Of a stretch of DNA of 64,000 bases, positions 570-20,454 are shown piece by piece. This stretch comes from a virus, in IMG/VR virus record IMGVR_UViG_3300002835_007718, positions 1-64,000 of that record; one strand, given 5' to 3'. Under the pieces are notes generated by a model. The model worked only from the letters and a program-made list of their open reading frames with translations. It was not told where the DNA came from and searched no databases. Each line of letters opens with the position of its first letter. Within the stretch, counting starts at the first letter, position 1. Made by a program: the position numbers and the translations under genes.

Positions 570-1431
570 TGTAAACAAATCTCCTATGATGTGATGCATA
601 GTTCTGAATTATTTCAGCATCAGTTAATTTTTTACCATAAACTCTAATAATAGCCATTCTACCATCAAAATAAGTTCCATCACCTTGGCTTGTCGAATCA
701 AGGGCTCCAAATGCAATACGAAATTCTGAAGTTAAATTATCCATAGGTGAACTAAAATTTACATTTGCGGTTTGGCCTACTAAAACACCATCAACATAAC
801 CCCTTACAGGACTACCATGACCATCATATGTTAATACCACTTGATGCCATTCATTAAATGACAAAGCACCAGTTCCACCGGTACTTGTAATACCCGCACC
901 GGTCCATAATCCAAATTCAACTTGACCTGATACTAATTCGATAATACTATTATGATATCCAACCTCAATGTTGTTTTGCCCTAAATGAGAAGCTATAACC
1001 CCATTATTAGTTGGATAAATCCAAACTTCAACCGAATGAGCTTCATCTCCAATAGTTATCACTTGGTCTAAATCTGGAGTAATAATATAATCGTTTGAAA
1101 ATGTAAAATATCCAGCAGAATTCCAAGGCGGAGAACCTACAATTGTTCCGTTTCTATTGTTTCGTGCAATGTCAATAATTGATGTGCCGGTGCCAGTATA
1201 AGATGTTTCAAATCCAGCATCGTAATACAATAATAAATCATCAGTAATAATCGGTTCTATTGGAATTTCATAATTAGCCGCAAGTTGATTTCTCAAAAAA
1301 TTTTGATACTTTAACCAACTCTGGCGGTTTTGTTCTTCAATGATTTTATTTCGGTTAGCTTTTTTAGCTTCCAAAGCCATCTCTTTTTTACGGAGATAAT
1401 CTTTTAAATTTGAGTTATTACTAAAATCCAT
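562..1431 (-). CDS. LamG/concanavalin-like jelly-roll domain protein
   Basis: A 289-residue protein. Residues 8-55 are charged and helical, likely a coiled coil. From about residue 70 to the end it has the LamG/ConA-like beta-sandwich pattern: SVEVWIYPT, then NEWHQVVLTYDG followed by GYVDGVLVG, and a final RMAIIRVYGKKLTDAEI strand and helix that is typical of this fold in secreted and phage proteins. Such domains bind carbohydrate or decorate virions. With no signal peptide and a coiled-coil N-terminus, a virion role (fibre, head decoration) is more likely than secretion, but this is inference. It ends 8 nt inside the HAD gene and starts 4 nt after the zincin gene. Confidence 0.65.
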   Translation of the reverse strand: MDFSNNSNLKDYLRKKEMALEAKKANRNKIIEEQNRQSWLKYQNFLRNQLAANYEIPIEPIITDDLLLYYDAGFETSYTGTGTSIIDIARNNRNGTIVGSPPWNSAGYFTFSNDYIITPDLDQVITIGDEAHSVEVWIYPTNNGVIASHLGQNNIEVGYHNSIIELVSGQVEFGLWTGAGITSTGGTGALSFNEWHQVVLTYDGHGSPVRGYVDGVLVGQTANVNFSSPMDNLTSEFRIAFGALDSTSQGDGTYFDGRMAIIRVYGKKLTDAEIIQNYASHHRRFVYNG

Positions 1432-4433: not shown

Positions 4434-5246
4434 TTATAACTCCACTTCTTTAATATAAATTTTAATTTTGGGGGTTCTGCCCTCCGGTAGTCTATTTACA
4501 ATTCCATTAAAACTTTCCACTTTTGATTTAAAATAGTGAAGAGTTAGTTCTCGGTCGGTAAGATTCAACATTAATTGTGAAGAGGTAGACATTTTTTCAG
4601 TATCTCTTCTCATGTTTAAGTGAGAATTACTTTTGTAAAATTGTTTTTTTAGTCCATCAAGAATATCTATAGCGTTTTTTGATATATCAAGAATCTTTTC
4701 AGCAGAAGTTTTTCTAATTTTAGATGAAAGATAATCATCACCTTTTGTATATCCAGCATCATAATAATGATATCCATGATTTGTTCTAACAAAGTTGTTA
4801 GAAGAAAGGTCTCTAATATCTAATTTAGGATTATGCTTTGAGGTCATTTCCATAGAAACCATTTTTTGTGGGTCGGAAACAAATGTGTGTCCTTTTACTC
4901 CCATTTTAGCAACAAGTTCTACAACTTCTTTTAGAGTTTTTTTTGTTAGTGCGGTTCTGATACGATTACCATCTTTAGAAGGCTTGCCCCCTTTTTTTAC
5001 GATTTTCTTTTCGTTTTCATCATATCCAACCATTAGTGCCGTATTTAATACACCAATACCATATTCGTTCATACCCTCTGACCAATCCGTAACCATATCA
5101 CGGAGATACGCAATTTCTACACCATCCACGATTTCGTGAACAATTTCCAATTTAGGTTTGTAGGCCCTATCTCGGTTTTTAACCATAATAATAGCATCTC
5201 CCACCTTTTTGGCTACGATGATACATTCATTAATTAATTTATTCAT
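4434..5246 (-). CDS. Ntn-hydrolase-like protein (acyltransferase/C45-like)
   Basis: A 270-residue protein. Near the N-terminus it has Cys8 followed by a strand and KNRDRAY (residues 23-29), then DWSEGMNEYGIGVLN and RTNHGYHYYDAG. This order (N-terminal Cys, NxDR, a Trp-Ser-Glu-Gly-x-Asn-Glu segment, then TNH) resembles the Ntn-hydrolase families that include acyl-coenzyme A:6-APA acyltransferase and C45 peptidases, which cleave amide bonds after autoprocessing. Here the nucleophile would be Cys8, removed from the extreme N-terminus, so processing would have to cut after residue 7. It starts 33 nt after the stop of the 214-residue gene. Substrate unknown. Confidence 0.45.
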   Translation of the reverse strand: MNKLINECIIVAKKVGDAIIMVKNRDRAYKPKLEIVHEIVDGVEIAYLRDMVTDWSEGMNEYGIGVLNTALMVGYDENEKKIVKKGGKPSKDGNRIRTALTKKTLKEVVELVAKMGVKGHTFVSDPQKMVSMEMTSKHNPKLDIRDLSSNNFVRTNHGYHYYDAGYTKGDDYLSSKIRKTSAEKILDISKNAIDILDGLKKQFYKSNSHLNMRRDTEKMSTSSQLMLNLTDRELTLHYFKSKVESFNGIVNRLPEGRTPKIKIYIKEVEL

Positions 5247-5279: not shown

Positions 5280-5924
5280 TTACTTATTTTCGAATTCGTA
5301 AAAGAAAGAATCATCATTTCCAGCAGACCATTTGCTTCCTCTTTCACATAAAAATTCTTTTGTAGAAACTTTAAAATCAGGTTTGCAAATTCCAAGTGGT
5401 GTTAAAGATTGGTCGTGAAATAGAATACGATTATTTGGTTGAGCTGCAAATTGACCATTATCCAATTTTATTACATTAAATGACTTATGTTCATTTGGAG
5501 TTTGAGAAAGAGATACATTTAATTCATTAGGGTCGGAATGCGCTGAATCAATAGTAAACATATACTCACCCTTATAAAACTCTCTATCCTTCATATACAC
5601 CATTACATCTAACTTTGAAAGTGTAGATTTTTCAATCACCGAAATGTTATAAGAGAACGCATCCCATATTTCTAAAAAGTCCAATGGTAGAAGTTCATCT
5701 TCTTTAACATCAGTTTTCCAAACATATGCTGATATTGGGAGTTTGTCGTATAAAGCACCATAATTAGTAAGGAGTGATTCAAAGTATAAAGCCTTACCCT
5801 TAATAGATTTTACACTTATCCAATAACAAGGTTCAAATTCTCCAAATCCTTTTTGAAAATCATACAAGTATTCTTTACGAATATAACAATCTATTGGTGG
5901 TAAATTTGCAACTAAATAACTCAT
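5280..5924 (-). CDS. Conserved phage protein, unknown function
   Basis: A 214-residue soluble protein with mixed alpha/beta composition and no signal peptide or recognised catalytic motif. Its N-terminus (PPIDCYIRKEYLYD, then FEPCYWISVKSIKGKALYFE) has the look of a conserved core and I recall similar proteins in T4-like phages of marine bacteria, always without a known role. It follows the export cassette by 11 nt and may be co-transcribed with it, but nothing in its sequence suggests export. Confidence 0.6.
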   Translation of the reverse strand: MSYLVANLPPIDCYIRKEYLYDFQKGFGEFEPCYWISVKSIKGKALYFESLLTNYGALYDKLPISAYVWKTDVKEDELLPLDFLEIWDAFSYNISVIEKSTLSKLDVMVYMKDREFYKGEYMFTIDSAHSDPNELNVSLSQTPNEHKSFNVIKLDNGQFAAQPNNRILFHDQSLTPLGICKPDFKVSTKEFLCERGSKWSAGNDDSFFYEFENK

Positions 5925-5935: not shown

Positions 5936-6334
5936 TTAATCAAGCGCATTAATAATTGCTTTTTTCACAGCTATTGAAAATTCAGTTTGTTCAAATGGTA
6001 AATTTTCATCTTGAAGTTGTAAAAGAGTTGCTGCTACATTCATTTTAGCAACACCCACCCCAACTGATTCTTTACCATCTTTGGTTACGGTTACAGTTAC
6101 AAAAGTTTTCTTTTGTTTAAATTCAAACGGACCAACTCTAATTCCTTTAGTTGGTGCTTTGATTTCATTTACTACTACGTGAATTGGTGAACCATCAGGA
6201 CAAAGTGGTGCTTCTTGACCTACGATTTCTTCGGTGATTTGTCTTACACCAAAGGTGAATTTTTCTTCAGATACTCCAGCGATTGAAGTAAGCGATATTA
6301 CTGAAGATACGAAGTAACATAAAATTGAGCTCAT
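5936..6334 (-). CDS. Small exported protein at the end of the export cassette
   Basis: A 132-residue protein whose first 20 residues are hydrophobic (signal-peptide-like, possible cleavage near GVS). The mature part is mostly beta: TFGVRQITEEIVGQ, then HVVVNEIKAPTKGIRVGPFEF and KKTFVTVTVTKDGKESVGVG, ending in a helix. No family is recognised; it is too different from CsgE or CsgF for me to assign it to either. Its ATG overlaps the stop of the PA14 gene by 4 nt, so it is translationally coupled to a run of exported proteins and may be a periplasmic accessory of the CsgG-like pore. Confidence 0.55.
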   Translation of the reverse strand: MSSILCYFVSSVISLTSIAGVSEEKFTFGVRQITEEIVGQEAPLCPDGSPIHVVVNEIKAPTKGIRVGPFEFKQKKTFVTVTVTKDGKESVGVGVAKMNVAATLLQLQDENLPFEQTEFSIAVKKAIINALD

Positions 6335-7455
6335 TGTATTTTTCCTATATTAGAGTTGGGGGAAGCATTGTGAATTCCAGTTCCCATTATATAAAACTGA
6401 TTTTGATTTTGAATTGTTCTTACTTGAGTTGGAAAGTAAGTGTTATAATAATTAGTGTTTGCATTAGACTCTATTGTTGTTTTTTCTGCTTGTGTAAAAA
6501 CATATTTGTTGTGAAAAAATCCATTTGAATATAACATATAACAAAAATAAATATCTTCCCATTCAAAGGTAGAACTATTATTACAATCACAAGTGTAGAA
6601 GTCCCAATCTTGTAGTGGTCCTAATTCTGCTTTCATAAACATCATATAGTTCATACTAAAATCAGTAATCAAATGAAATTTATTTGATGTGTTAATAGTA
6701 ACTCTATAAGGTCTATTATTAACATTGGAAAATATTGCTTGTCCGTTTGAGTTTGTATTTAGAGTTCCTTGCGATACCCAATTAGTGGATGTTACTCCAA
6801 TTTCATTTAGTTGTAAAGTCCAATTAGATTGAGAAGGTCTTCTCCATACCAATACCAAACCATCCCCACCACTATATTCCTGCATTCTTGCAATAACATT
6901 ATATTGTTGACCAGCAACCATTGAATAGTTTCCATATTGGTAAACTCCAACCCCCTTACCCCCATAATATTCAATTACCGATGTTCCGTTGATTGATAAA
7001 TCAGAACCATCATCGGATGTCAATCCAAATGAATATGTGCCCGTTTCCGCAGCAACAAAAGTGAAGGTTACTTCAGTAGAATAGTAATCACCATTATTAG
7101 GCACGGAAGCACCTGCTGAAGTTAGTGTTCCAAAATTTAAAAAGTTTAAAGATGTAGTTGCGTTTAAATTACCAGTCCACCAAAGAGTTGTTGCACTCCA
7201 AGATGTGCTAAATAACCTATTCATTTCTGAACGAGTGGATGGGTAATTTTGATATTGAGATGTGCCTCCATTACCAAAGTGGGTTCTGAATATCCTTACT
7301 GATGTTGTTCCATTACCAGTTGTTATTTGATGTTCCATCGTAATTGGAATCCCACTTACATCCTGCGTTCCGATTGGGGTAAGCGTTACAGTTTGAGAAT
7401 ATCCCTCAATTGATACTGTAAGTATAAAAATAAGAGTAAAAATAAACTGTTTCAT
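6331..7455 (-). CDS. Secreted PA14-domain protein
   Basis: A 374-residue protein with a clear signal peptide (residues 1-20, cleavage after GYS). Residues 75-208 match a PA14 domain: TYSFGLTSDDGSDLSING at 140-157, then VAGQQYNVIARMQEYSGG and VLVWRRPS, the usual glycan-binding beta-barrel pattern. Residues 290-308 (CNNSSTFEWEDIYFCYML) resemble a dockerin-like calcium loop and helix, comparable with the repeat in the T9SS protein of the same cassette. It has no T9SS sorting domain of its own. A surface adhesin or glycan binder is likely. It overlaps both neighbours by 4 nt. Confidence 0.7.
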   Translation of the reverse strand: MKQFIFTLIFILTVSIEGYSQTVTLTPIGTQDVSGIPITMEHQITTGNGTTSVRIFRTHFGNGGTSQYQNYPSTRSEMNRLFSTSWSATTLWWTGNLNATTSLNFLNFGTLTSAGASVPNNGDYYSTEVTFTFVAAETGTYSFGLTSDDGSDLSINGTSVIEYYGGKGVGVYQYGNYSMVAGQQYNVIARMQEYSGGDGLVLVWRRPSQSNWTLQLNEIGVTSTNWVSQGTLNTNSNGQAIFSNVNNRPYRVTINTSNKFHLITDFSMNYMMFMKAELGPLQDWDFYTCDCNNSSTFEWEDIYFCYMLYSNGFFHNKYVFTQAEKTTIESNANTNYYNTYFPTQVRTIQNQNQFYIMGTGIHNASPNSNIGKIQ

Positions 7456-8924
7456 AATAACATTTTTGCACCTGTTGAAATTTGGAAGTTAAGAATATCT
7501 ACACCATATTGGTATGCCCCACCAAATGAAACACTTAATTTAAATTTATTAGTTAATTTCATATCTACATTTGCAAGTGGAACTAACAAAACTCCGCTAC
7601 TATACCATTGACCCCCATAATAAAATACATATGGTGAATAAACTCCTAATAACATAATATTTGATGTTAAAAATTTACCTCCTTTAAAGTTAGTAAACCC
7701 ACCAGCCACAACACTCCAATTTTGAAATCCACCATCACCAAGTTTACCAAATGTATAATTAGTTCCCAACATACCCGTAAATTTCCAAATTTTTTGTGCA
7801 CTTAATAAAGTTGTAGTATTAAATATATCGGATTTAAAGTTAGTCATTGTAGAGTTAGAAAATACTCCCATGAATCCCTTTTTTTTATATGAACCATATA
7901 AAGTTGTATTTAAAACATTTTCACCAGTAGTATAATTAAAATTTAAACCTTTAATAAAATTTTGTTTGGTGTTTACATGGGTTAATGATGTGTTGAATCT
8001 ATAATTATCATTTCCACCCTTTTCTATATTATTTCCGTTTCTGATTACTACCATATCACCAGACCCAATCAAAGAACCTCTACTTACTTTTTCTTGCTTA
8101 CTTTTAGGTTTATTACCCCCACCTCCACTTTTACCACCGCCACCTGAAGAACCACCTGATTCGGATTCACCACCACTTGCGGTAGTTGTATTTTCTTGTC
8201 CACCAACTGCTCCTTCGGTTGTTCCGCCACCTTCGGTTGTTCCGCCACCATCAGTTCCACCACCACTACTGGGTTGTTCACTACTGCTGCCTGAGCCACC
8301 GCCTGAGCCACCACTTCCGCCAGAACCACCCGAACCCCCACTTCCGCCTGAACCTCCACCAGAGCCTCCGGAACCACCGCCTGAGCCTCCACTACCTGAA
8401 CCCCCACTACCTGAGCCTCCACTACCTGAGCCTCCACTACCTGAGCCTCCACCACTTCCACTTGTGTTAGAACCACCACCACTTCCACCGCTAGTATTTG
8501 AACCACCTGAAGATGATGTATTGGTAGGTGGTGGTATGTTAAGTGAACCTGCTGCTTGGGAACCTATTCCTGCTGCGATACCAACTATATTACTTATATT
8601 ATTTACTAAATTAGTAGTATTGGATACATTAGCTGTAGTTGTAATTTGTGGGGCGTTTCCAGCACATGGATTATAGCCAGGTGGAAATTGCGCATTTATT
8701 GATTGAACCCATTGTTCATAGGCTCCGTTTAATAATTGTAATTGTGTAAAATTTTGATATTGGCCAGCGTAAAATAATGTTACTGAACCAGATGGTTGGG
8801 TTATTGTTATTGTATTGGGTAACCCGGTACAGGGGTCGGTATATGTATATTGAAACGATTGTCCATATACACTACCAGCCCCTAATATTAAAAGTAGAGT
8901 TAATATCCACTTCTTACCATCCAT
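7452..8924 (-). CDS. Exported Gly/Ser-rich protein with probable outer-membrane beta-barrel
   Basis: A 490-residue protein with a signal peptide (1-21, ending VYGQ). Residues 22-130 form a small N-terminal region with two cysteines. Residues 135-280 are almost pure Gly and Ser with GGSGGGS-type repeats, a long flexible linker. Residues 300-490 are alternating beta strands with aromatic girdles (FNTSLTHVNTK, GLNFNYTTG, TTLYGSYKKKG and so on to STGAKMLL), typical of a small outer-membrane barrel of about 10-12 strands. It resembles a porin-like surface or translocator protein, but no named family is recognised. It starts 11 nt inside the CsgG-like gene and overlaps the PA14 gene by 4 nt. Confidence 0.65.
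   Translation of the reverse strand: MDGKKWILTLLLILGAGSVYGQSFQYTYTDPCTGLPNTITITQPSGSVTLFYAGQYQNFTQLQLLNGAYEQWVQSINAQFPPGYNPCAGNAPQITTTANVSNTTNLVNNISNIVGIAAGIGSQAAGSLNIPPPTNTSSSGGSNTSGGSGGGSNTSGSGGGSGSGGSGSGGSGSGGSGSGGSGGGSGGSGGGSGGSGGSGGSGGSGGSGGGSGSSSEQPSSGGGTDGGGTTEGGGTTEGAVGGQENTTTASGGESESGGSSGGGGKSGGGGNKPKSKQEKVSRGSLIGSGDMVVIRNGNNIEKGGNDNYRFNTSLTHVNTKQNFIKGLNFNYTTGENVLNTTLYGSYKKKGFMGVFSNSTMTNFKSDIFNTTTLLSAQKIWKFTGMLGTNYTFGKLGDGGFQNWSVVAGGFTNFKGGKFLTSNIMLLGVYSPYVFYYGGQWYSSGVLLVPLANVDMKLTNKFKLSVSFGGAYQYGVDILNFQISTGAKMLL
8386..8450 (-). repeat. 15-bp tandem repeats inside the Gly/Ser-rich gene
   Basis: On the plus strand the unit cctccactacctgag is repeated about four times with few changes, the cleanest part of a longer degenerate array (about 8280-8520). 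On the coding strand it encodes repeated Gly-Ser-Gly-Gly units. Such arrays change length easily by slippage. Confidence 0.8.
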
Positions 8925-9654
8925 ATGCTTCCATGCGTTTAACGAGGTTCATTGTAGCAACCTCCAACGCACGTTGAGTAGCAATACCAACGGTTGAGTT
9001 ATCAAATCCCATTTGAGGATTTTTAAACATACCTTCACCTACTTGAGTAGCAGTTCCTTGCCCACTTGCAACAATGTATTGTGAGTTATCAACATTTACC
9101 ATACGAATTTGAACACCCATAATGGTAGTGTTTGTTTTTTCGATTTTACCTTTATTATAGTTTTCACCATATGAAACTGCAAAGTCATAAATTTCGGCGT
9201 ATACGATATATTTAGGAACTGCAACACCTTCCATTGATAATTTGGTTTTACCATTGGACATTCCTTCTAATTCAGTTTCCCACGCATCTAACATTTGAGA
9301 TACAATAGCTTCTTTTTCTTCAGCGTAAGAAAATCTACCTGTAACTTCAAAATTTTCTACAATACGATTAGAAACACCCAAACCAACCCTTTTATCTCTC
9401 AATTCAGGAAACATATCCCATAGGTCTTTGTTTACATTCAATTTAGAAAGTTGAACTACCTTTCGTTCGCCTGTATATACCGGAATAGTATTTAGTGGTT
9501 CTGCCTTTTCAAAATCTGCTTGATATTGTTGAACACCAATTGAAGATTTACAAGATGTAGCCATTGTTCCTACAAACAATAAACCACCAACTACCATCAA
9601 TACGCCAAGTGGAGCGAAGATACTTTCAAGGATAACATCTTTACGAGTTCTCAT
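8914..9654 (-). CDS. CsgG-like outer-membrane lipoprotein
   Basis: A 246-residue protein with a hydrophobic N-terminal segment (14-33) followed by Cys35 in MATSCKSS, a plausible lipobox. The mature part matches the CsgG layout: VGLGVSNRIVENFEVTGRFSY (fragile-subunit strand, helix and edge), a helix with EEKEAIVSQMLDAWE, VPKYIVYAEIYDF, VQIRMVNVDNSQYIVASGQG, and a C-terminal helix NSTVGIATQRALEVATMNL. CsgG forms a nonameric pore in the outer membrane that secretes curli subunits. No CsgA-like amyloid repeat protein is visible. CsgG-type genes are known from some marine phages, but their role there is unsettled. It overlaps the upstream gene by 1 nt and the barrel gene by 11 nt. Confidence 0.7.
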   Translation of the reverse strand: MRTRKDVILESIFAPLGVLMVVGGLLFVGTMATSCKSSIGVQQYQADFEKAEPLNTIPVYTGERKVVQLSKLNVNKDLWDMFPELRDKRVGLGVSNRIVENFEVTGRFSYAEEKEAIVSQMLDAWETELEGMSNGKTKLSMEGVAVPKYIVYAEIYDFAVSYGENYNKGKIEKTNTTIMGVQIRMVNVDNSQYIVASGQGTATQVGEGMFKNPQMGFDNSTVGIATQRALEVATMNLVKRMEAYGW

Positions 9655-10052
9655 TAGTTACCTCCACCAGCATTTTCAGCTCGTTTTGCTTTCAATCTCG
9701 CCATTCTTTCTGCGTTGGTTTCTTTTGGTTCTTCCACCGGCGCTGCAGCAGGTTGAGCTGCTGGTTGTTGTGCTGGAACTTCTCTTACAGTTTCTCTAAC
9801 AATTGTTTTAGTAGATGATGGTGCAGATTGTTGTTCTGGAATATTAATAATTACACTTTGATTTTGTTGTTGAGTGTTATTATTTTGAACATCAACTTGT
9901 TCTGTTTGTTCTTCCTCTTCAACACCAAACAATTTTTCAATATGTGTAGTCACATATACCCCAGCGGCTGTAACTGCGGTTGTTACAAGGCCAATAATGG
10001 TTTTCTTAACCGTTGACATTGTGCCTTCTTTTTCTTGTGTTTCTTCGCTCAT
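9654..10052 (-). CDS. One-TM protein with Gln/Pro/Ala-rich tail
   Basis: A 132-residue protein. Residues 15-36 (VKKTIIGLVTTAVTAAGVYVTT) form one membrane helix after an acidic N-terminus; the rest is low-complexity, Gln-, Ala-, Pro- and Glu-rich, and ends in a basic helix (AERMARLKAKRAENAGGGN). No family is recognised. A spanin- or stalk-like inner-membrane protein reaching into the periplasm is possible, in keeping with its place beside the CsgG-like gene. It lies 6 nt after the T9SS cargo gene and shares 1 nt with the CsgG-like gene. Confidence 0.55.
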   Translation of the reverse strand: MSEETQEKEGTMSTVKKTIIGLVTTAVTAAGVYVTTHIEKLFGVEEEEQTEQVDVQNNNTQQQNQSVIINIPEQQSAPSSTKTIVRETVREVPAQQPAAQPAAAPVEEPKETNAERMARLKAKRAENAGGGN

Positions 10053-10057
10053 GATGT

Positions 10058-11986
10058 TTAGTTTTTAATGATTCTATAAAATTTATCTCTATCTGATGTA
10101 ATTAATCTAACAATGTAGATTCCTTTAGGTAATTCATTCATTCTAATGCCATGATATTGGAATCCAGCATCGTATATTTTTTCAGTAGAATATTTTAACA
10201 TCCTACCATTTATGTCATAAACAAATGAGTTTAAGGTTGTATTTTCGTTTTCATTATAATGTTCTATGAAAACCCAGTTTCCAGTTAAATCTGAAGTTGG
10301 GTTTGGATACACTTTAAATGATTCCATCATTTCTACTAATGATGGGTCTAATCTTCTTTTATTTACAACCGAACCATCGTTTGGTGAAGGTTTAATAGAT
10401 AAATCTACTGCGTTATCATCACCGGCTGATTTGTTAAATATTTCTAAAGGAGATTGTGTCCATCCCAATGGGTCTAATATATCAAATACAAATGTAAATT
10501 GAGTTGTCATATCTTCAATCACCGATGGGTTCATTCTATCTTCGTGTCCTGCCCAAAATACTTTATCTTCTTCTACGGATACTAATGATGTCCACTTTGA
10601 TACTGAATTACCTACTTCTACTGATTTGAATCTAAAGATATTAGTATCAAACTTAATACCCATTTGAGCTGCTCCAATTTTATTTCCAAAAGTATACATG
10701 GTAACAGGCACTCTCATTTGATTATCAGTAGTGCTTACTAATTTTGGAATTCTAAATTGAACGGTATCGGGTTTGTTAACCATATAAACTGCTGGGTCTA
10801 ATATGTAATCAGTTCCACCACCAGGAGTTGCGATTCTAGCCATAATAACTGCTGGGTTATTATATCCAGTAGTAGTTGCATCACCTACTACATAAATGTA
10901 AGGGTTAATGGTAGCTAATCCATTTACAATTGTATCAATTGAATATCTACGTGGTAAGGTAGTCCAGTTTGGAACAGCGGTTGCGGTTACCGCGTTACCA
11001 TATTCGTTAGGCCAAAGAACTACTACGTTATTAACTCCACTAAATAATGAATTCCAAGTAGTGGTTTGTAAAGCCAATCGGTTAAATACTGCGAAGGCAT
11101 CTGATACTGTAATTGATTGTGATTGGTTAATATCACCTGCATACAATTCGGTTCCACTTAATGGGTCTTGTTGAGATGCTGCGTTTGCAAGTTTGTAAGC
11201 ATCGGTAATTGATATAGAACCACCATCTGTCATAGTATCCGTTTGAGCAAGAATACGTAAGTGCCAGAAGTTAGTATCAATTGGATGTTCAATATCAAGT
11301 TGACCTAATGAATTGGTAGAATCAGATGTGATTGGTTGCCACGTAGCAAGAGGAGTTGATTTTAATCTTTTTTGTGCCGTAAACCAAACACCTTGAGCAG
11401 GAGATGCATCTGCGTTATTGACTTGTATTGGAAAAATTAAAGGGGTCATTCGGAAATTACCACCATAATTAAACATTCCCAATGGTTCATCTACACCATT
11501 TCCGGTTGTAGCTAAGTTGTTATATGAAGTTGAACCAACAATAGCAATAGAGTCAGCAATACCATTGAATGCACTTGAGTGAGTTAACCTTAATCTAAAC
11601 ATCGCACCATCATTCCAATCAAATGAGGTGTTGTTACCAGTATAGGTTGCAATTACGTTAATGTAGTTTGATGAGTTAAAATACGAACCATACTTATCTG
11701 CTACCGAAAGTGCGGTTGGTCCCCAAAACATTTGTGCTGATGAGAATTTTACATTATCATAGAACAAACGAAACTGAACTGCTTTAATGTTATCCGCCGT
11801 TGGGTTAGCAAAGTGAATGTAAACATCAGTATGTGTTGCTGGAAAGTTGTCTAATGTAAAAAGGGTATCCACCAATATGTATGGTGAATTAGAGTTTGGC
11901 GGTGTTAAGATTTCGTTTGCACCATTTTGACCATATGTGGATAAAGTCGTAAGCATAGTTACGAACAATGCCATTAATTTTTTCAT
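10058..11986 (-). CDS. Secreted cohesin/dockerin-like protein with T9SS sorting domain
   Basis: A 642-residue protein. Residues 1-19 are a signal peptide. Residues 36-180 and about 400-530 are two cohesin-like beta-sandwiches (for example AVQFRLFYDNVKFSSAQMF and GAAQMGIKFDTNIFRFKSVEV). Between them, 255-270 and 284-303 are two dockerin-like repeats, the second reading GDINQSQSITVSDAFAVFNR. Residues 557-642 are a type A T9SS C-terminal sorting domain: YPNPT at 560-564, VYDINGRML, LPKGIYIVRL and a basic KFYRIIKN end. In Bacteroidota such a domain sends a protein through the type IX system to the cell surface. The start has a good SD (GGAG) 7 nt upstream. This is the first gene of the export cassette. 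Confidence 0.8.
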   Translation of the reverse strand: MKKLMALFVTMLTTLSTYGQNGANEILTPPNSNSPYILVDTLFTLDNFPATHTDVYIHFANPTADNIKAVQFRLFYDNVKFSSAQMFWGPTALSVADKYGSYFNSSNYINVIATYTGNNTSFDWNDGAMFRLRLTHSSAFNGIADSIAIVGSTSYNNLATTGNGVDEPLGMFNYGGNFRMTPLIFPIQVNNADASPAQGVWFTAQKRLKSTPLATWQPITSDSTNSLGQLDIEHPIDTNFWHLRILAQTDTMTDGGSISITDAYKLANAASQQDPLSGTELYAGDINQSQSITVSDAFAVFNRLALQTTTWNSLFSGVNNVVVLWPNEYGNAVTATAVPNWTTLPRRYSIDTIVNGLATINPYIYVVGDATTTGYNNPAVIMARIATPGGGTDYILDPAVYMVNKPDTVQFRIPKLVSTTDNQMRVPVTMYTFGNKIGAAQMGIKFDTNIFRFKSVEVGNSVSKWTSLVSVEEDKVFWAGHEDRMNPSVIEDMTTQFTFVFDILDPLGWTQSPLEIFNKSAGDDNAVDLSIKPSPNDGSVVNKRRLDPSLVEMMESFKVYPNPTSDLTGNWVFIEHYNENENTTLNSFVYDINGRMLKYSTEKIYDAGFQYHGIRMNELPKGIYIVRLITSDRDKFYRIIKN

Positions 11987-12020
11987 TATATTTCTCCATT
12001 AAATTCGTAACTTATTTAAA

Positions 12021-12096
12021 GTGGAAAGGGTCGCCTTTCACGATTGTTCAATACATAATCACCAAATACACTAAAAATATTAGGCGACCCTTCCAC
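12021..12096 (-). terminator. Long inverted repeat between lysis genes and export cassette
   Basis: GTGGAAAGGGTCGCC at 12021-12035 pairs with GGCGACCCTTCCAC at 12083-12096 with one bulged base; flanking ATTTA/TAAAT bases can extend the stem. The loop is 47 nt, too long for a classic intrinsic terminator, and there is no strong T-tract after it on the minus strand. It lies between the holin-like gene and the T9SS gene, so it may end or slow transcription, protect an mRNA end, or form a regulatory RNA. Confidence 0.5.
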
Positions 12097-12111
12097 TAAA
12101 TCTAAATATAG

Positions 12112-12363
12112 TTATCCCTCTTCTGAAGTATTATCTTTTTTGCTACCACCAAAAATCTTACCAGCTTCTGCAATACCAAATGAACCCAATGTAATAATTA
12201 CAAATGAATTAAAGATGGTGTCACTAATTTCTAATGTCTGACCCATGATGCCAGTTACGATATCCGCTCCGGCGAATATTGCCATTATTGCGAATGAAGC
12301 AAACCCAACAATTGATTTTTCGTTGTAATCGTTTTTATCTTTGAAAATGTCACTAAATGCCAT
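12112..12363 (-). CDS. Holin-like two-TM membrane protein
   Basis: The start is set at ATG 12363, because AAGGAG sits 7 nt upstream; a frame opening 9 codons earlier lacks an SD. The 83-residue product (MAFSDIFKDKND start) has two membrane helices, about residues 19-36 and 50-68, and a charged tail (GGSKKDNTSEEG). Size, topology and location right after the endolysin gene suggest a holin, which would let the endolysin reach the cell wall. Part of the sequence (IFNSFVIITLGSFGIAE) is familiar from phage proteins of unknown role, so holin remains inference. Confidence 0.6.
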   Translation of the reverse strand: MAFSDIFKDKNDYNEKSIVGFASFAIMAIFAGADIVTGIMGQTLEISDTIFNSFVIITLGSFGIAEAGKIFGGSKKDNTSEEG

Positions 12364-12441
12364 AAATTTTCTCCTTATATATGAAAACATAGCGTAACTC
12401 CTTTTTAATAAATATTATATCTAAATATAATACCTAAATAA

Positions 12442-13287
12442 CTATACAATATTTTTTGATTCAATTAACGTATAAGTAAAAGATTTATTGCCAGCAGATG
12501 CAGATTTTCTTGCAATTTTCATAAATTCTTCGAAATCAGCAGCTCTTTTAAATACCTGACATCCTTCAGACCAGTTTTCTACAAAAGTAGAGTCAGCACC
12601 GGCCTTATGGATGTTAATACCAAATACACCTTCTTGAATTTTTGTTTCATCGTAATTCATATCACGATTGGCATCACGGTATACTTTTACTTTACCAAAT
12701 TGCTTTAGTGCTTCGTATTTTCCTTGATGTAATCCTAATCCATGTGAATTAATATATTGACCAGGAACTAATCTAGCAACACCTGCTGCGTTATGGTATT
12801 CCTTAACACCTTTAGTACCAGGATCGGTGGTGTTCATCCACTCTTTGTAAACCCAAACGCCATTTTCTTTGTATGATACAGTAATTCTATCATCAAAAGC
12901 GTTGGTTACTTTTGTACCCGTATCTGAATTACGAACACCTACAATATTAAGTTCAAGGTCTTTACCTTCAAACCACTTGTATCCTTTTGCTTTTACTGCT
13001 TTTTCAATTGATTCTTTATTGTATTTTGCAGCAGCACTTGGCTTTGAGGTAGCCACAGCTGGTTTAGCAACAGGTTTAGCAGCGGTGGGAGCTGCTGGAG
13101 CTTTGAGACCTAATTTAACTAATGTAGATTCACCAACAATACCATCAGCGGTAAGTCCGTGCTTTGTTTGAAATGCTTTTACAGCATCTTCGGTTTTTGG
13201 TCCAAAATTACCAATTGGGTCAACACCCAATGCTTTTTGGATTTCTTTGATGAATTCGTTATTATCACCTCTTTTGTAAACAGCCAT
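12442..13287 (-). CDS. Endolysin candidate: PG-binding domain plus L,D-transpeptidase-like domain
   Basis: A 281-residue protein. Residues 1-55 are a PG_binding_1 domain (IKEIQKALG, FGPKTEDAVKAFQTKHGL, DGIVGESTLVKLG). Residues 56-85 are an Ala/Pro/Lys linker. The C-terminal part has GINIHKAG with H227 and WSEGCQVF with Cys243, the spacing and SxGC motif of the YkuD/L,D-transpeptidase fold. In that family the Cys forms an acyl-enzyme with peptidoglycan peptides; in a phage this domain most likely cleaves the wall. No signal peptide, so export would need the holin. AGGAG lies 7 nt before the ATG. Confidence 0.7.
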   Translation of the reverse strand: MAVYKRGDNNEFIKEIQKALGVDPIGNFGPKTEDAVKAFQTKHGLTADGIVGESTLVKLGLKAPAAPTAAKPVAKPAVATSKPSAAAKYNKESIEKAVKAKGYKWFEGKDLELNIVGVRNSDTGTKVTNAFDDRITVSYKENGVWVYKEWMNTTDPGTKGVKEYHNAAGVARLVPGQYINSHGLGLHQGKYEALKQFGKVKVYRDANRDMNYDETKIQEGVFGINIHKAGADSTFVENWSEGCQVFKRAADFEEFMKIARKSASAGNKSFTYTLIESKNIV

Positions 13288-13690: not shown

Positions 13691-13928
13691 TTACTCAATA
13701 TAATAAAATGGTATAATCCAATCAATTCCAAACGGGTCTGTTACTTTAAGTTCTTGATTTTGTTCGTTGACTAATATAAGAGTCACCTTTTCGTTCTCTA
13801 ACAGACTTCCTTTGTGATTGGAAAATGTCTTCTTCATTTGAAGTTTTTTTCCTATTTGATTTTGTAAATTTTTCATAACCAGCTGATTCCTCTTCCCAAT
13901 TGATACTGTTAACATTAATTTTGGCCAT
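13691..13928 (-). pseudogene. Small gene split by frameshift at a 7-A run
   Basis: Two overlapping frames look like halves of one gene. The frame from ATG 13928 (MAKINVNSINWEEESAGYEK) is plausible up to the run of seven A (plus strand T 13844-13850) and then turns into low-quality, basic sequence. A second frame, plausible after the run, ends at 13691 in EKVTLILVNEQNQELKV and a hydrophobic IDWIIPFYYIE tail. Removing one A joins them into a 78-residue protein. This may be a real mutation, a homopolymer sequencing error or slippage during expression. Otherwise, two small overlapping genes. No function can be given. Confidence 0.5.
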
Positions 13929-14166
13929 TACGAATTACCTTTAAATTTTTTATTGCCTCCAAGAATTCGTCTATGGAATAAGATTTGTTTTTTTCGTCTT
14001 TGATTGTCACCTCGGTCAAGGTGTTTGGATAATTTTCTACCAATTTTATAAGAATATCGAATCCGCTATCGGCCCAAAAATTCTTAAATGATACTTCTCC
14101 TAATATGTTAGTGTCATAATTAACACTTTCTTCCGTATCACCTGGCAGTAATATAAAATATCTCAT
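13915..14166 (-). CDS. Small acidic protein, unknown
   Basis: An 83-residue protein, hydrophobic core pattern at both ends (MRYFILLPGD, SIDEFLEAIKNLKVI), acidic overall, no membrane segment or known motif. The start overlaps the glycosyltransferase at 14163 by 4 nt and its end overlaps the next small gene by 14 nt, as expected for a co-translated phage gene. Confidence 0.55.
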   Translation of the reverse strand: MRYFILLPGDTEESVNYDTNILGEVSFKNFWADSGFDILIKLVENYPNTLTEVTIKDEKNKSYSIDEFLEAIKNLKVIRNGQN

Positions 14167-15344
14167 AATTTAATTAACCCAGCTTCATAATGTTTTACTT
14201 GGTTGACCTTTACTTTAAATATGTCGAATTCATACTCACCACTATCAAAATTGTTAAAATCAAAAATTTCAGATAGACTTTGAATGAATTGAAATGAATG
14301 ATTACTCATTCGCTGTGCATCAAATTCAACAATAATGTCTGATTTCTCATTCGTATTGAACTTTTTAGACAAATCAAATTTGGTGTTGGGTTGTTCCGAT
14401 TGAATGTATTGATTGATTACATCTTGCGAACAATCTACACTCATTCTATCACACCAAGGTTCTAATGCTTCAATCATCTTGAGGTCGCAATTTGAGACTT
14501 CAAACTCAACATCATATTTGTGAGGAACTATTGGTTTCATCATTTTATCATGTTTAACAAAATGACCCCATTTACGAATAAAATTACGAGTAGACCTAAT
14601 GTTTTGTGCTTCCCACTCATTTGAGTTTTGACCTGGAGTTGTAAGAGTTGGATTAAATCGTGAACCTCTACAAGTCATATGGTATACAAACCCATCCCAA
14701 GTCTGAATAAAGTTATAACCATTCAACAAGAATCGGTTGAATATATCAGAATCCTCTTTTGATTGAGGCGCATACAATGGGTCGTGTCCGCCAATTGAAG
14801 TAAAATCTTCTTTAAATAAAAACCAAGGCGCAAAAATACCCTCTGTTGTTTTACCCTGCTTTAATGATGGGATTTGATGTAACAAATCATCTTCTAACTC
14901 TACAAATTGTTCGGGCTCAATACCAAAATCCATTAATAGTTTTTCCGGCCCATTGGGATGAAGTGGTGGTTCAATACGAGTTAATGATACAACAGTCAAT
15001 GGTTTGATATGTTCTAATACAGATTCCAAAGCACCAGGACAAAGATACATATCAGCGTGATAGATACCAACAATTGGTGTAGTTGCTACATCATTAATTA
15101 ACCTATCATATAAGATTGTATGCCCCAACCTAACGGGTCCTTCGTTTCGGATTGCTTTAAAGTTTGGGTCGGTTTGCATCATTTCTTGACACCATTCCCA
15201 AGTTCCATCATTACTGAAATCATCAGCTACACAAATTGTGGGCTCTGGTCCCGCGTTCTTTCTAATACCTTCGTAAGACCACTTGAGATATTTCAAGTTA
15301 TTACGACTTGGTTGTATAAAGGATATGTCTTTTTTTGTTAACAT
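14163..15344 (-). CDS. GT2-type glycosyltransferase with C-terminal extension
   Basis: A 393-residue protein. The N-terminal 240 residues have the GT-A pattern: DISFIQPSRNNLKYL start, CVADDFSNDGTWEW (nucleotide-binding Asp pair), HADMYLCPGAL in the DxD position, and GGHDPLYAPQSKEDSDIFNRF for the acceptor/metal region. Residues 280-393 form an added domain. It should move a sugar from a nucleotide-sugar to a glycan or protein in the cytoplasm. A promoter sits inside the upstream gene, 59 nt before this start. It is the last gene of the sugar island. Confidence 0.75.
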   Translation of the reverse strand: MLTKKDISFIQPSRNNLKYLKWSYEGIRKNAGPEPTICVADDFSNDGTWEWCQEMMQTDPNFKAIRNEGPVRLGHTILYDRLINDVATTPIVGIYHADMYLCPGALESVLEHIKPLTVVSLTRIEPPLHPNGPEKLLMDFGIEPEQFVELEDDLLHQIPSLKQGKTTEGIFAPWFLFKEDFTSIGGHDPLYAPQSKEDSDIFNRFLLNGYNFIQTWDGFVYHMTCRGSRFNPTLTTPGQNSNEWEAQNIRSTRNFIRKWGHFVKHDKMMKPIVPHKYDVEFEVSNCDLKMIEALEPWCDRMSVDCSQDVINQYIQSEQPNTKFDLSKKFNTNEKSDIIVEFDAQRMSNHSFQFIQSLSEIFDFNNFDSGEYEFDIFKVKVNQVKHYEAGLIKL

Positions 15345-16252
15345 AACTTAAATTTTAATTTAAATGCTTCTTCACTATAATAAGTATTATATAATTCTTG
15401 TGTTAATATACGATTTTCTTCGTAGAAATCCAAATCGTTCCATAAATTTTTTAATAATGACTTTGCTTTAACAAGGTCACCATCATCTACTGATAAATTT
15501 GGATGTAAAATTTGTTGAGTATCTAATCCGTTATATCCAATACATGGTATTCCTAAATACGAACAATTTAATGCAAATGTTCCTGCTGCATGAGTTCTCA
15601 TCATGTGAATACCAACTCGTCTTTTACTTAATTCAGAAATCCATTGATTCCATTCCAAGTATGGCAATTGAGTAATTCCAAGTGTCGACTCACCCTCTTG
15701 TCTCCTACCCATTTGTGGTGAATAGATTTCATCGGTAACTGAAGATGCTAACATAAATGAATCAAATCCACCATACCAACTTTTCATATTACCGCCAATC
15801 ATAATACCATTTCTATTTTCGTGTGGTGTTATGTTTTGAATGGGGTCTTCAATCATTAGTGATTGTAAAACTCTAACATCAGAATGATTTGTTAGTCCTT
15901 GATAATATTGTTTATCTTGGTGATTATGAACAAATATAATGTCAGCAGAAACAAGATTGTTGTAGTAGTGAATCTGATTTGTTAGATTATAATCTTGAAA
16001 ATACCAAAATGGCCCTTCTTGCATTACGCCTACTTTTTTACAAAATCGTTTGATATGCGTTAAGTCAACAAGTTCTGGATTATTTTTTGGAGTAATTACA
16101 ATACCTAAATCATATTCTTCCAATGGGTGATGTTTTAGGTTATAATGCGTAGCATCTAATGCAACTATCCAAGCAAACTCCGTTCTCATGTTGTTATGGG
16201 TTCTTGGTATTTTACCAACAAACTCCATTTCAGTAAAGAATGCTATTTTCAT
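15338..16252 (-). CDS. GT-B-fold glycosyltransferase-like protein
   Basis: The start is set at ATG 16252 (MKIAFFTEMEF), with GGA about 8 nt upstream and a 1-nt gap to the preceding gene; an ATG four codons earlier is also possible. About 304 residues in two Rossmann-like halves: GIVITPKNN and VGVMQEGPFWYF in the first, IMIGGNMKSWYGGFDSF and RVGIHMMRTHAAGTFALNCSYLG in the second, where the latter resembles the donor-binding region of GT-B enzymes. Substrate unknown. It ends 7 nt inside the next gene. Confidence 0.6.
   Translation of the reverse strand: MKIAFFTEMEFVGKIPRTHNNMRTEFAWIVALDATHYNLKHHPLEEYDLGIVITPKNNPELVDLTHIKRFCKKVGVMQEGPFWYFQDYNLTNQIHYYNNLVSADIIFVHNHQDKQYYQGLTNHSDVRVLQSLMIEDPIQNITPHENRNGIMIGGNMKSWYGGFDSFMLASSVTDEIYSPQMGRRQEGESTLGITQLPYLEWNQWISELSKRRVGIHMMRTHAAGTFALNCSYLGIPCIGYNGLDTQQILHPNLSVDDGDLVKAKSLLKNLWNDLDFYEENRILTQELYNTYYSEEAFKLKFKLC
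15403..15434 (-). promoter_or_regulatory. Intragenic promoter, TTTG-N20-TATATTAA
   Basis: Inside the 3' end of the GT-B-like gene: -33 TTTG (15434-15431), exactly 20 nt, then TATATTAA (15410-15403), with CG just before the -7 box as in sister sites. It would drive the GT2 gene beginning at 15344. Confidence 0.5.
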
Positions 16253-16253
16253 A

Positions 16254-16856
16254 TTATTTTCCATAACTCAATATTATACCCTCTTGGTGTATTGTGGTAA
16301 AAGAGCTACCATCTGTTCTATTTACTTTAAACCCAGCGGGCTCTCCTATATATTTTTCAATTACCAACCCAGCATCTATCGCTTCATTAACAGCTTTATA
16401 CACTCCAGTAGAATCAGGATGTCCGTAATCATCAAATACTAAATAAATACCAGTATCGTGATTCATTTTTGTTAGGGCTTGATTTATATCAAATATTACA
16501 TTTTCGTATAAATGTATACAATCAATTACGACTACATCATAATAGGTTCGTAAAGTATCGTATGTTTTAACATTATATGCATCGTTCAATATAAAATCAA
16601 TATTACCAATACCACTACAATATTCTCTAGCTTTAGCAAGTCGGTTTGGATTAAATTCAATAGTGTCTACATTATGAAATAACGAACTTAAAACTTTAGT
16701 AGTTACGCCATAACAGGTGCCAACTTCCAAACAAGATTCTAAATTTTTTCCATAAAAAAAATCTATAACATCATGTTTCCATTTTAATGATGTGGTATCT
16801 TTATGTTCTAAATTCTTTTCAGAAATTCCTTCTAATATTTTATATTTAATTTCCAT
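16254..16856 (-). CDS. Class I SAM-dependent methyltransferase
   Basis: The start is set at ATG 16856 (MEIKYKILEG); a frame opening further upstream is not supported by an SD. The product has about 200 residues. SCLEVGTCYGVTTKVL matches SAM motif I, followed by VDTIEFNPNRLAKA (acidic residue binding the ribose) and YDVVVIDCIHLYENV. Closest in style to small sugar- or O-methyltransferases encoded in glycan clusters. It overlaps the glycosyltransferase upstream by 11 nt and leaves 1 nt to the gene downstream. Confidence 0.7.
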   Translation of the reverse strand: MEIKYKILEGISEKNLEHKDTTSLKWKHDVIDFFYGKNLESCLEVGTCYGVTTKVLSSLFHNVDTIEFNPNRLAKAREYCSGIGNIDFILNDAYNVKTYDTLRTYYDVVVIDCIHLYENVIFDINQALTKMNHDTGIYLVFDDYGHPDSTGVYKAVNEAIDAGLVIEKYIGEPAGFKVNRTDGSSFTTIHQEGIILSYGK

Positions 16857-17613
16857 ATAATTCTTTATAAGTTCGTTCCATCCAATAAAAAACATTTCTT
16901 GGATTTGGTGGAATTGCGTTAAAATGATATATCCACCCCGCGTCTAAAAAGTGTAACTCATCACTAAACAAAGAATATTGTGGAATGTGTAATAGATTCT
17001 TTCTAAACAAATCTTGTAGATTATAACACTCATCCATATAAGTAACATCAATATTATGGAGTTGTGTTAAATAATTGATAATTGTTTGGTCGGTTCCAGC
17101 GCTTATTTTATCATTCCAAACATTGATAGTTTCTATATTATCTAAATAATATTTCTGAACTTCTTTGTAAAATGGTATGTGTGATTTATTGGTAATTTGA
17201 AACCCACCATTAAAATATTTCCAAGGTTTAATCTTGGGTTCATTTGGAAATAAAGCATTACCCCAATCTCGTATACTACGAGTTACCCATTCATAACATC
17301 CATTATTTACAACTACCCCCAACTTACCATCAGTTTCATTGAAAAAGTTTGGAGTTTCAGGATGTATAATTGTATCCGCATCAACAATTAAAACTTGGTC
17401 GTAATCAATATTATTATGCTGAAGAATTTCGTGAACCCAATATCTTTGTAAAGTTACTTTAAATTTATTTACATCAGTAATTGGTTCGGTCCATTCGACT
17501 AATTCAACATTGTGTTTATCACACCAACTTTTCCAACTTTTTATGGAATAGTGATATGAATTATTCCGACCATTACCTAAATCTACATTTGGTATAAAAA
17601 CTATATTTTTCAT
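16846..17613 (-). CDS. GT-A glycosyltransferase (GT8-like)
   Basis: A 255-residue protein with the nucleotide-diphospho-sugar transferase pattern: VFIPNVDLG at the N-terminus, QVLIVDADTIIHPETPNFF with the DxD metal motif, and KYFNGGFQITNKSHIPFYKEV for the acceptor loop. GT8 and related enzymes transfer hexoses with retention. It is one of about ten sugar transferases in this island. Start 4 nt overlap with the epimerase gene. Confidence 0.7.
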   Translation of the reverse strand: MKNIVFIPNVDLGNGRNNSYHYSIKSWKSWCDKHNVELVEWTEPITDVNKFKVTLQRYWVHEILQHNNIDYDQVLIVDADTIIHPETPNFFNETDGKLGVVVNNGCYEWVTRSIRDWGNALFPNEPKIKPWKYFNGGFQITNKSHIPFYKEVQKYYLDNIETINVWNDKISAGTDQTIINYLTQLHNIDVTYMDECYNLQDLFRKNLLHIPQYSLFSDELHFLDAGWIYHFNAIPPNPRNVFYWMERTYKELYGN

Positions 17614-18440: not shown

Positions 18441-18441
18441 T

Positions 18442-19870: not shown

Positions 19871-20454
19871 AGTTGGTCGTTTTTTCCTAAATGACATTTG
19901 TATCCAAATCCAAGTTTTTTAAGATTATCTTCGGTTTTTTTGTTCATATTAAATTCATTTGTGATGATTAGCTCAATTAAAATTGCTTGAGTTTCTGAAA
20001 AGAAATCCTCACATTCTAATATATTTGCTTCAGCACCTTCTACATCCATTTTAACAATGTGGGGTCTTATAGTTTCGTTGTTTGCGTTTTTAAATGGGAC
20101 ACTAATTGAATTTTCTTTGTTAAAAATACTATATGTTCCATTATTTGATTTACCATCGGAACGCATTCCTATTGTAAACTCGCCATCAGAATTAAACAAC
20201 CCATATTCGTGTATAGTAAATCGTGTATCTTCTAACTTTCGTAGTTCGTTCAAATTGTCTGGCTGTGGTTCGTATGCATGAAGTTCACATTCAGGATATA
20301 CTTCTAAAAAAGATTCGGAAAAATATCCAATATTAGCACCAATATCGGCTATAATAGGATTTGGTGGATTTACACCATACGTTTCCTTCAATTCTTTTAT
20401 TTGACGAAGTGCGCCAGGTTTAAGTTGTGATTTTAATTGTTTTGTTAATAACAT
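19858..20454 (-). CDS. FkbM-family methyltransferase
   Basis: Start at ATG 20454, overlapping the upstream stop by 1 nt. About 198 residues: IIADIGANIGYFSESFL (SAM motif I), ELHAYEPQPDNLNEL (acidic ribose-binding loop), HIVKMDVEGAEANILE (the DVEG motif typical of FkbM enzymes) and ILIELI. FkbM enzymes O-methylate sugars and polyketides, so in this island it probably caps or modifies a glycan. Good match over the whole length. Confidence 0.8.
   Translation of the reverse strand: MLLTKQLKSQLKPGALRQIKELKETYGVNPPNPIIADIGANIGYFSESFLEVYPECELHAYEPQPDNLNELRKLEDTRFTIHEYGLFNSDGEFTIGMRSDGKSNNGTYSIFNKENSISVPFKNANNETIRPHIVKMDVEGAEANILECEDFFSETQAILIELIITNEFNMNKKTEDNLKKLGFGYKCHLGKNDQLWLK

What the first reader, a model, noticed from the sequence alone, without database searches (positions are those of the whole stretch)
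5936..11986. Phage export cassette: CsgG-like pore with a T9SS-sorted surface protein
Six genes with overlaps of 1-11 nt all carry signal peptides or membrane anchors. In order they are the T9SS/cohesin protein, a one-TM protein, a CsgG-like lipoprotein, a Gly/Ser-rich barrel, a PA14 protein and a small exported protein. Phages rarely encode a set of dedicated surface proteins. The cassette may remodel the host envelope during infection for superinfection exclusion, adhesion, pore formation before lysis, or release. CsgG in some marine phages is known; its pairing with a T9SS cargo appears new to me.
Basis: partly seen in the sequence, partly recalled or inferred. Interest (0 to 1): 0.9.

Follow-up and report, generated by a model that had tools for sequence, protein, structure and literature searches.

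The report
Lysis-linked phage cell-surface lectin scaffold
A block of six genes, kept in the same order in many viruses of Bacteroidota bacteria and sitting beside the genes that burst the cell, appears to dress the dying host's surface with interchangeable sugar-binding proteins held on a cellulosome-like scaffold; what this does for the virus is not yet known.

Summary
The six genes are real and exported. T9SS sorting domain, cohesin and PA14 pass curated cut-offs. The "CsgG" protein has the CsgG fold (Foldseek E 1.5e-8) but misses Pfam CsgG and is about 10 residues short at each pore-forming hairpin, so a pore is unlikely; the fourth protein is the outer-membrane barrel. Relatives in the cultured Flavobacterium phage immuto and IMG/VR keep the order P1-P2-P3-P4 with P6 in 43/43 dereplicated loci. 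The family is phage-restricted: of 85,000 species genomes only three metagenome-derived bins match, all in phage contigs. The PA14 gene is one allele of a slot that swaps C-type lectin, PA14, LamG or GEVED domains onto a constant dockerin-like tail. P1 carries cohesins, the same dockerin-like loop and the T9SS anchor; in immuto these are separate secreted proteins, as in a cellulosome. Verified endolysin/holin genes lie inside or within 2 kb 63 times, farther away once; a late-promoter-like motif precedes cassette and structural genes. Best reading: a late, T9SS-anchored glycan-binding surface scaffold; purpose inferred, not shown.

The parts
12442..13287 (-). endolysin (peptidoglycan-binding domain + hydrolase-like region), directly upstream
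   Evidence: PF01471 3e-13, several PHROG endolysin families; late-type motif TATTTATT 40 nt before the start
12112..12390 (-). small membrane protein, holin-like by position and hydropathy only (family 'holinA')
   Evidence: no library hit; same family next to the cassette in many loci; late-type motif 24 nt before the start
12020..12097 (-). long G+C-rich stem-loop in the leader of P1
   Evidence: fold z = -3.3, 0 of 200 shuffles as stable; similar stems upstream of P1 in L008 and L011; no Rfam match
10058..11986 (-). P1: signal peptide, cohesin-like domain, Ig-like + dockerin-like module, second cohesin, T9SS type A sorting domain
   Evidence: 14/14 family members have PF18962, 11/14 PF00963
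10061..10312 (-). T9SS C-terminal sorting domain of P1 (aa 559-642)
   Evidence: TIGR04183 36.7 bits (cut-off 23), PF18962 33.3 bits (cut-off 27)
10574..10759 (-). cohesin match of P1 (aa 410-471)
   Evidence: PF00963 28.4 bits, cut-off 24.1
11099..11134 (-). dockerin-like calcium loop of P1 (DINQSQSITVSD)
   Evidence: same pattern in 13/14 P1
9654..10052 (-). P2: N-terminal membrane segment then about 90 aa Gln/Pro/Ala/Glu-rich tail, likely N-in/C-periplasm
   Evidence: N-in inferred from KK before the segment
8914..9654 (-). P3: CsgG-fold protein with lipobox (ATSC) in this phage; no pore-length hairpins
7452..8924 (-). P4: signal peptide, small N-domain with two conserved Cys, helix, disordered Gly/Ser linker, C-terminal 12-strand outer-membrane barrel
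7461..8075 (-). 12-strand beta-barrel of P4 (aa 284-488)
   Evidence: AlphaFold2 pLDDT mostly 80-90; Foldseek to NanC, KdgM, TamA, intimin, NalP
6331..7455 (-). P5: exchangeable ligand-binding protein, here with PA14 (about aa 54-220), on a constant Ig/dockerin-like tail
6553..6588 (-). dockerin-like calcium loop of P5 (DCNNSSTFEWED)
   Evidence: pattern in 24/30 P5
5936..6334 (-). P6: small exported protein, truncated relative of P3
   Evidence: hhalign of P6 family with P3 family: probability 91.7, E 7.7e-7

Best explanation
The cassette is a late-expressed, lysis-linked device that changes the surface of the infected Bacteroidota cell. P1 is exported by Sec, passed through the host's own type IX secretion system and fixed on the cell surface, where its cohesins act as sockets. 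P5 (PA14 here; C-type lectin, LamG or GEVED in relatives) plugs into them through a dockerin-like tail, so the lysing cell and its debris carry the phage's glycan-binding proteins. P2 (inner membrane), P3/P6 (CsgG-fold, periplasmic or outer-membrane side) and P4 (outer-membrane barrel) form an envelope-spanning support that places, exports or triggers the surface parts. Most likely purpose: to occupy host surface glycans at the end of infection, so that progeny do not re-adsorb to debris and late superinfection is blocked. Shown by computation: domain content, conserved order, slot swapping, phage restriction, linkage to lysis genes, late-type motif. Inferred: surface placement, cohesin-dockerin binding, the role of P2/P3/P4/P6, and the purpose.
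For: T9SS domain and cohesin over cut-offs, in 14/14 and 11/14 P1 relatives; T9SS domain over cut-off in 29/31 phage records, mostly one copy. P5 swaps lectin types on a constant tail homologous to P1's middle (hhalign 99.5%, E 8e-23), with a calcium loop in 24/30 P5 and 13/14 P1. In immuto-type phages P1 is split into cohesin-like+dockerin-like and cohesin+T9SS-domain proteins, each with its own signal peptide, beside a lectin+dockerin-like protein: anchor, adaptor and effector, which need non-covalent joining. Lysis linkage: 63 genes near or inside against 1 far. Late-type motif upstream of structural and cassette genes, seen independently in immuto; 15/32 P1 leaders against 4.5% in shuffles. 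This phage's collagen-like fibre carries a PA14 domain 44% identical to that of P5.
Against: No experiment; no proteomics found. P5 domain type does not track fibre domain type across phages, which weakens exact receptor mimicry. P5 has no T9SS domain, so its route across the outer membrane is unexplained. The dockerin-like module shows one clear calcium loop, not two, and seldom passes Pfam Dockerin_1. P1 of the L051 group lacks the T9SS domain; a small lipoprotein stands there instead. Six of 43 loci lack a recognised P5.
Confidence: 0.42

Rival explanations
1. Outer-membrane breach machine: P2 (inner-membrane protein with periplasmic tail), P3/P6 and the P4 barrel bridge the two membranes and disrupt the outer membrane once the endolysin has removed peptidoglycan, in place of Rz/Rz1 spanins; the surface lectins are an accessory.
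For: Cassette sits in or beside the lysis genes. No Rz-family spanin in 31 phage records. Kongari et al. (PMC6139136) list Bacteroidota phages (B124-14, P2559S/Y) as spanin-less and suggest that an outer-membrane protein could act as o-spanin. P2 and P3 overlap by 1 nt, with inner-membrane and lipoprotein signals.
Against: Does not explain the T9SS scaffold or swapped lectins. P3 has a lipobox-like motif in only 48/88 members. Only one spanin Pfam family was searched; unimolecular or diverged spanins were not.
Confidence: 0.22
2. Cell adhesion or 'sibling capture': the surface lectins glue infected cells to neighbours or particles so that progeny meet hosts at once, as proposed for pelagiphage curli.
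For: Ligand-binding domains swapped between relatives; surface scaffold architecture; sibling capture argued for phage curli (PMC9599517).
Against: A late motif next to lysis genes leaves little time to aggregate. In cultures infected by Melnitz, a phage with curli genes, no clumping was seen (PMC9004378).
Confidence: 0.17
3. Dedicated secretion apparatus: P3/P6 ring and P4 barrel export P5 in a PelB/PelC- or curli-like way; lysis linkage is only a timing device.
For: P3 matches CsgG and PelC folds; P5 needs a route across the outer membrane; P4 lies between P3 and P5.
Against: P3 hairpins are too short for a CsgG barrel. A 12-strand barrel is narrow; P4's best fold matches include small porins as well as translocators. 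No CsgF found.
Confidence: 0.12
4. Virion accessory proteins (decoration or fibres).
For: PA14 and LamG domains also occur in fibres of these phages.
Against: Sec-type N-terminal signals conserved across the families, T9SS domain and outer-membrane barrel; tailed-phage virion proteins assemble in the cytoplasm (general knowledge).
Confidence: 0.05

Closest known systems
Phage-encoded curli (type VIII secretion) genes of pelagiphages and Melnitz (PMC9599517, PMC9004378; HTVC008M L088, Melnitz L089)
   Same: CsgG-fold outer-membrane-side protein in a gene cluster of a lytic aquatic phage
   Different: Their protein is a true CsgG (37-40% identical to E. coli CsgG) with CsgF and curlin; here no Pfam hit in the window protein, short hairpins, no CsgF or curlin, T9SS scaffold instead
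Cryophage T9SS cargo proteins (PMC7468147)
   Same: Bacteroidota phage genes with T9SS type A sorting domains, variable between variants, one with PA14
   Different: Described as separate variable cargo genes; no cohesin/dockerin scaffold, CsgG-fold protein or lysis linkage described there; in the phage collection P3 matched only immuto isolates
Cellulosome (anchoring scaffoldin, adaptor, dockerin-bearing modules)
   Same: Cohesin plus surface anchor, cohesin-like plus dockerin-like, and dockerin-like plus binding module, as separate secreted proteins in immuto
   Different: Phage-encoded; lectins not enzymes; anchor is the T9SS domain; single clear calcium loop
Two-component spanins Rz/Rz1
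   Same: Inner-membrane protein gene overlapping a lipoprotein gene, next to endolysin and holin
   Different: P3 is a large CsgG-fold protein, often not lipidated by sequence; more partners; no sequence similarity found
PelC / TraT / CsgG-fold lipoproteins
   Same: Fold
   Different: Different operon partners; P3 about 10 residues shorter than CsgG at each transmembrane hairpin
T5 Llp receptor-blocking lipoprotein (PMC9586334, listing only; rest from general knowledge)
   Same: Proposed outcome: phage product on the host surface that blocks the phage's receptor
   Different: Llp is a single protein acting on FhuA; here a multi-protein glycan-binding scaffold, and the action is inferred

Membership tests
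CsgG / curli secretion (T8SS) | Pfam CsgG profile match | tested here: not met
   none in the window protein; 2 of 24 family members, best E 0.0016
CsgG / curli secretion (T8SS) | CsgG fold | tested here: met
   Foldseek top hits are CsgG, E 1.5e-8, probability 1.0; model mean pLDDT 66.6, TM about 0.5
CsgG / curli secretion (T8SS) | two transmembrane beta-hairpins per subunit of CsgG length | tested here: not met
   profile alignment collinear but with 10- and 11-residue deletions at the two hairpins; alignment weak, E 0.02
CsgG / curli secretion (T8SS) | CsgF, CsgE, curlin partners | tested here: inconclusive
   P4 N-terminus vs CsgF: 31 columns, mostly signal peptide, E 2e-4, prob 48; P6 vs CsgF negative; CsgE and curlin not aligned
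T9SS cargo | signal peptide plus type A C-terminal sorting domain | tested here: met
T9SS cargo | host with a functional T9SS; cleavage and surface attachment | not testable with these tools
   host of this record unknown; relative infects Flavobacterium sp. LMO8
Cohesin-dockerin scaffold | cohesin domain in an anchored scaffold protein | tested here: met
   PF00963 in 11/14 P1; cohesin + PF18962 in immuto gp015
Cohesin-dockerin scaffold | dockerin with duplicated calcium loops | tested here: inconclusive
   one clear loop in 24/30 P5 and 13/14 P1; Pfam Dockerin_1 in 1 of 30 and 1 of 14
Cohesin-dockerin scaffold | cohesin binds dockerin | not testable with these tools
   needs binding assay
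Two-component spanin | inner-membrane protein plus outer-membrane lipoprotein, adjacent, in lysis cassette | tested here: inconclusive
   P2/P3 overlap and lysis linkage met; lipobox-like motif in 48/88 P3
Two-component spanin | membership of Rz family | tested here: not met
   PF03245 absent in 31 phage records
Two-component spanin | required for outer-membrane disruption | not testable with these tools
   needs lysis assay

The most novel reading that the evidence does not exclude
Bacteroidota phages build, through the host's own type IX secretion system, a cellulosome-like surface organelle of interchangeable lectins and couple it to lysis through an inner membrane-periplasm-outer membrane bridge that takes the place of spanins, so that one cassette both opens the outer membrane and disarms the debris.
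Probability: 0.18. Interest if true: 0.95.

Novelty: categorically new. Interest (0 to 1): 0.78.

Why it matters
How Bacteroidota phages get through the outer membrane at lysis is open (several are listed as spanin-less in PMC6139136), and few phage systems are known that rebuild the host surface with several secreted parts. This cassette is widespread (at least 401 matching IMG/VR stretches), phage-restricted in the collections searched, and present in a cultured Flavobacterium phage, so both questions become testable by deletion, proteomics and binding assays. It would also be, to my knowledge, the first cohesin/dockerin-type scaffold of a phage and the first conserved use of a host T9SS shared by a whole phage group; the literature check covered only an open-access library.

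Tried and rejected
Direct profile searches for P3, P4, P6 in Pfam, NCBIfam and PHROGs: nothing convincing. P3 and P6 against PDB sequences: nothing meaningful. P6 as CsgF: rejected. P4 as CsgF: 31-column match dominated by the signal peptide, not accepted. Receptor mimicry as strict matching of P5 domain to the same phage's fibres: one good case in this phage, but PA14, Lectin_C and LamG elsewhere in the genomes do not track the P5 type across 32 records. T4 late promoter TATAAATA in the window: at chance level; sigma-70 scan at chance level. Rfam: no match. Cellular origin: first genome scan empty, second gave three contigs that are phage contigs in metagenome bins; plasmids empty. Paper search for phage + cohesin + T9SS gave none. 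The late/early motifs were found on the window's own genome, so only the immuto and cross-locus counts are independent; the cross-locus contrast with other genes is weak (p 0.04).
Full report
Observation. The window is 64 kb of an 84 kb IMG/VR virus record. Its structural genes resemble those of a T4-like contractile-tailed phage, and its replication genes follow the order found in the cultured Flavobacterium phage vB_FspM_immuto (by reading and annotation, no tree made). Junctions from P1 to P6: 5-nt gap, then overlaps of 1, 11, 4 and 4 nt. P1 has a T9SS type A sorting domain and a cohesin, and P5 a PA14 domain, all over curated cut-offs. P3, P4 and P6 have no convincing library match; P2 has only weak low-complexity ones.

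What the proteins are. P3: an AlphaFold2 model from 24 relatives (mean pLDDT 66.6) finds E. coli CsgG as its best solved structures (E 1.5e-8, probability 1.0), then PelC, GNA1162, TraT and other CsgG-fold lipoproteins. Sequence similarity is very weak (Pfam CsgG in 2 of 24 relatives, best 0.0016; profile-profile E 0.02 with CsgG). That alignment is collinear but lacks 10 and 11 residues where CsgG's two transmembrane hairpins lie, so P3 probably does not make a pore; this rests on one weak alignment and on the hairpin positions of E. coli CsgG from my own knowledge. P6 is a shortened relative of P3 (hhalign 91.7%, E 7.7e-7). P4 has a small N-terminal domain, a disordered Gly/Ser linker and a 12-strand C-terminal barrel at pLDDT mostly 80-90, matching NanC, KdgM, TamA, intimin and NalP barrels. 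P2 has one N-terminal membrane segment and a Gln/Pro/Ala/Glu-rich tail.

The cassette is conserved and belongs to phages. In 43 dereplicated loci with enough flank, P1, P2, P3, P4 and P6 are all present and P1-P2-P3-P4 are in order 43 times; 35 have the full order with P5 before P6. Loci were chosen by P3, so phages that lack P3 are not measured. Of about 85,000 bacterial and archaeal species genomes the two scans gave three matches, all on contigs that carry phage endolysins, holin-like genes and other genes of these viral loci, in metagenome-assembled bins. Plasmids gave none. In public phage records only the immuto isolates match, annotated 'hypothetical' apart from a 'cohesin' and a 'lectin C-type' protein.

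P5 is a swap slot. Relatives of P5 keep the signal peptide and the last 150 residues or so but exchange the middle: C-type lectin in 10 of 30 representatives, PA14 in 5, LamG in 3, GEVED in 2; seven of 43 loci have two copies. L002, whose P3 is 90% and P6 89% identical to the window's, has a P5 that matches only in its tail at 36%. The tail is homologous to the middle of P1 (hhalign 99.5%, E 8e-23) and holds a D-x-N-x-D/S-x-x-hydrophobic-x-x-x-D loop about 84 residues from the C-terminus in 24 of 30 P5 and at the equivalent place in 13 of 14 P1.

A natural experiment in immuto. There P1 is two genes. gp014 starts with its own signal peptide and has the cohesin-like domain (PF00963 2e-4 in its L066 homologue), the Ig-like part and the dockerin-like region; gp015, also with its own signal peptide, is cohesin (6e-9) plus T9SS domain (2e-8); the neighbouring gp013 is C-type lectin (3e-15) plus the dockerin-like tail. 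Anchor, adaptor and effector are thus separate secreted proteins, as in a cellulosome. Non-covalent joining through cohesin and dockerin-like parts is the simplest way to hold them together; binding itself is inferred.

Link to lysis. Families of endolysins (two) and a Phage_holin_4_1 holin, verified on representatives by Pfam/PHROGs, occur 63 times inside the cassette or within 2 kb of it, and once in the remaining 493 kb of flank. Counting also two unverified holin-like families, 124 against 3. In the window the endolysin and a holin-like gene lie directly upstream of P1. No Rz-family spanin was found in 31 of these phage records; Kongari et al. list Bacteroidota phages among the spanin-less ones and note that an outer-membrane protein could serve as o-spanin (PMC6139136).

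Timing. In the window's genome a TATTTAT[AT] motif lies 12-45 nt before 6 of 9 structural and 4 of 5 lysis/cassette gene starts that follow a gap, and a TcGTATaTT-type motif before 7 of 10 replication gene starts. The motifs came from this genome; in immuto the first is found before 17 of 26 starts in the structural region and before gp013 and gp014 of the cassette. Across loci 15 of 32 P1 leaders have it, 4.5% expected from shuffles; against other genes the contrast is weak. This points to late expression but is not a measurement.

Mechanism. I commit to a late surface scaffold: P1 by Sec and the host T9SS to the surface, P5 docked on it, P2/P3/P6/P4 as an envelope-spanning support, and glycan occupancy of the dying cell and its debris as the most likely benefit. 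In favour of binding the phage's own receptor sugar, this phage's collagen-like fibre carries a PA14 domain 44% identical over 172 residues to that of P5; against strict matching, P5 and fibre domain types do not go together across phages. The strongest rival is that the envelope-spanning part is the missing outer-membrane breach system. The two are not exclusive.

Known relatives. Pelagiphage and Melnitz curli are true CsgG/CsgF/curlin clusters (PMC9599517, PMC9004378). Cryophage has variable T9SS cargo, one with PA14, and its authors suggested superinfection exclusion (PMC7468147). I found no account of the present cassette, within an open-access library only. I therefore call the system new as a whole, built from known kinds of domains.

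Noticed in passing
window 12020-12097: A strong stem-loop (z -3.3) between the holin-like gene and P1; L008 and L011, which also have that gene upstream, keep similar stems with changed sequence.
   Followed up: partly
L001 9935-10513; L054, L062, L064, L069, L078 next to P6: Exported DNA/RNA non-specific endonuclease (PF01223 1e-25 in immuto gp012) beside or inside the cassette; it could destroy incoming or released DNA.
   Followed up: partly
record position 80558-84022 (L097 16536-20000, minus strand): Collagen-like fibre of at least 1,154 aa, cut by the contig end, with an embedded PA14 domain 44% identical to that of P5.
   Followed up: yes
L057 1325-1693; L051 6104-7897: In the L051 group the C-terminal part of P1 is a separate small lipoprotein without a T9SS profile hit, so the surface anchor seems to have been exchanged.
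   Followed up: partly
records behind L018, L019, L020, L033, L047: A second large ORF (519-542 aa) with a T9SS sorting domain away from the cassette; weak in three of the five records.
   Followed up: no
window 4434-5246: C45/Ntn-hydrolase-like protein (NF040521 2e-9, below cut-off) directly after the cassette, also in seven related loci.
   Followed up: no
window 562-1431: LamG (concanavalin-like) protein without signal peptide, similar to virion proteins of PHROG 8510; probably a fibre part.
   Followed up: no
window 13915-30416: Long run of glycosyltransferase-, methyltransferase- and sugar-nucleotide-like genes (by reading only), suggesting that the phage also remodels glycans.
   Followed up: no
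window 5280-5924: P7, strong member of PHROG 3704 ('ferredoxin', 1e-90); immuto gp081 is annotated ferredoxin too, but the sequence has no obvious ferredoxin pattern to my eye.
   Followed up: no
L100, L101, L102: Phage contigs with this cassette sit in metagenome-assembled bacterial genomes, one in a Sphingomonadaceae bin where the T9SS domain makes that host unlikely.
   Followed up: yes
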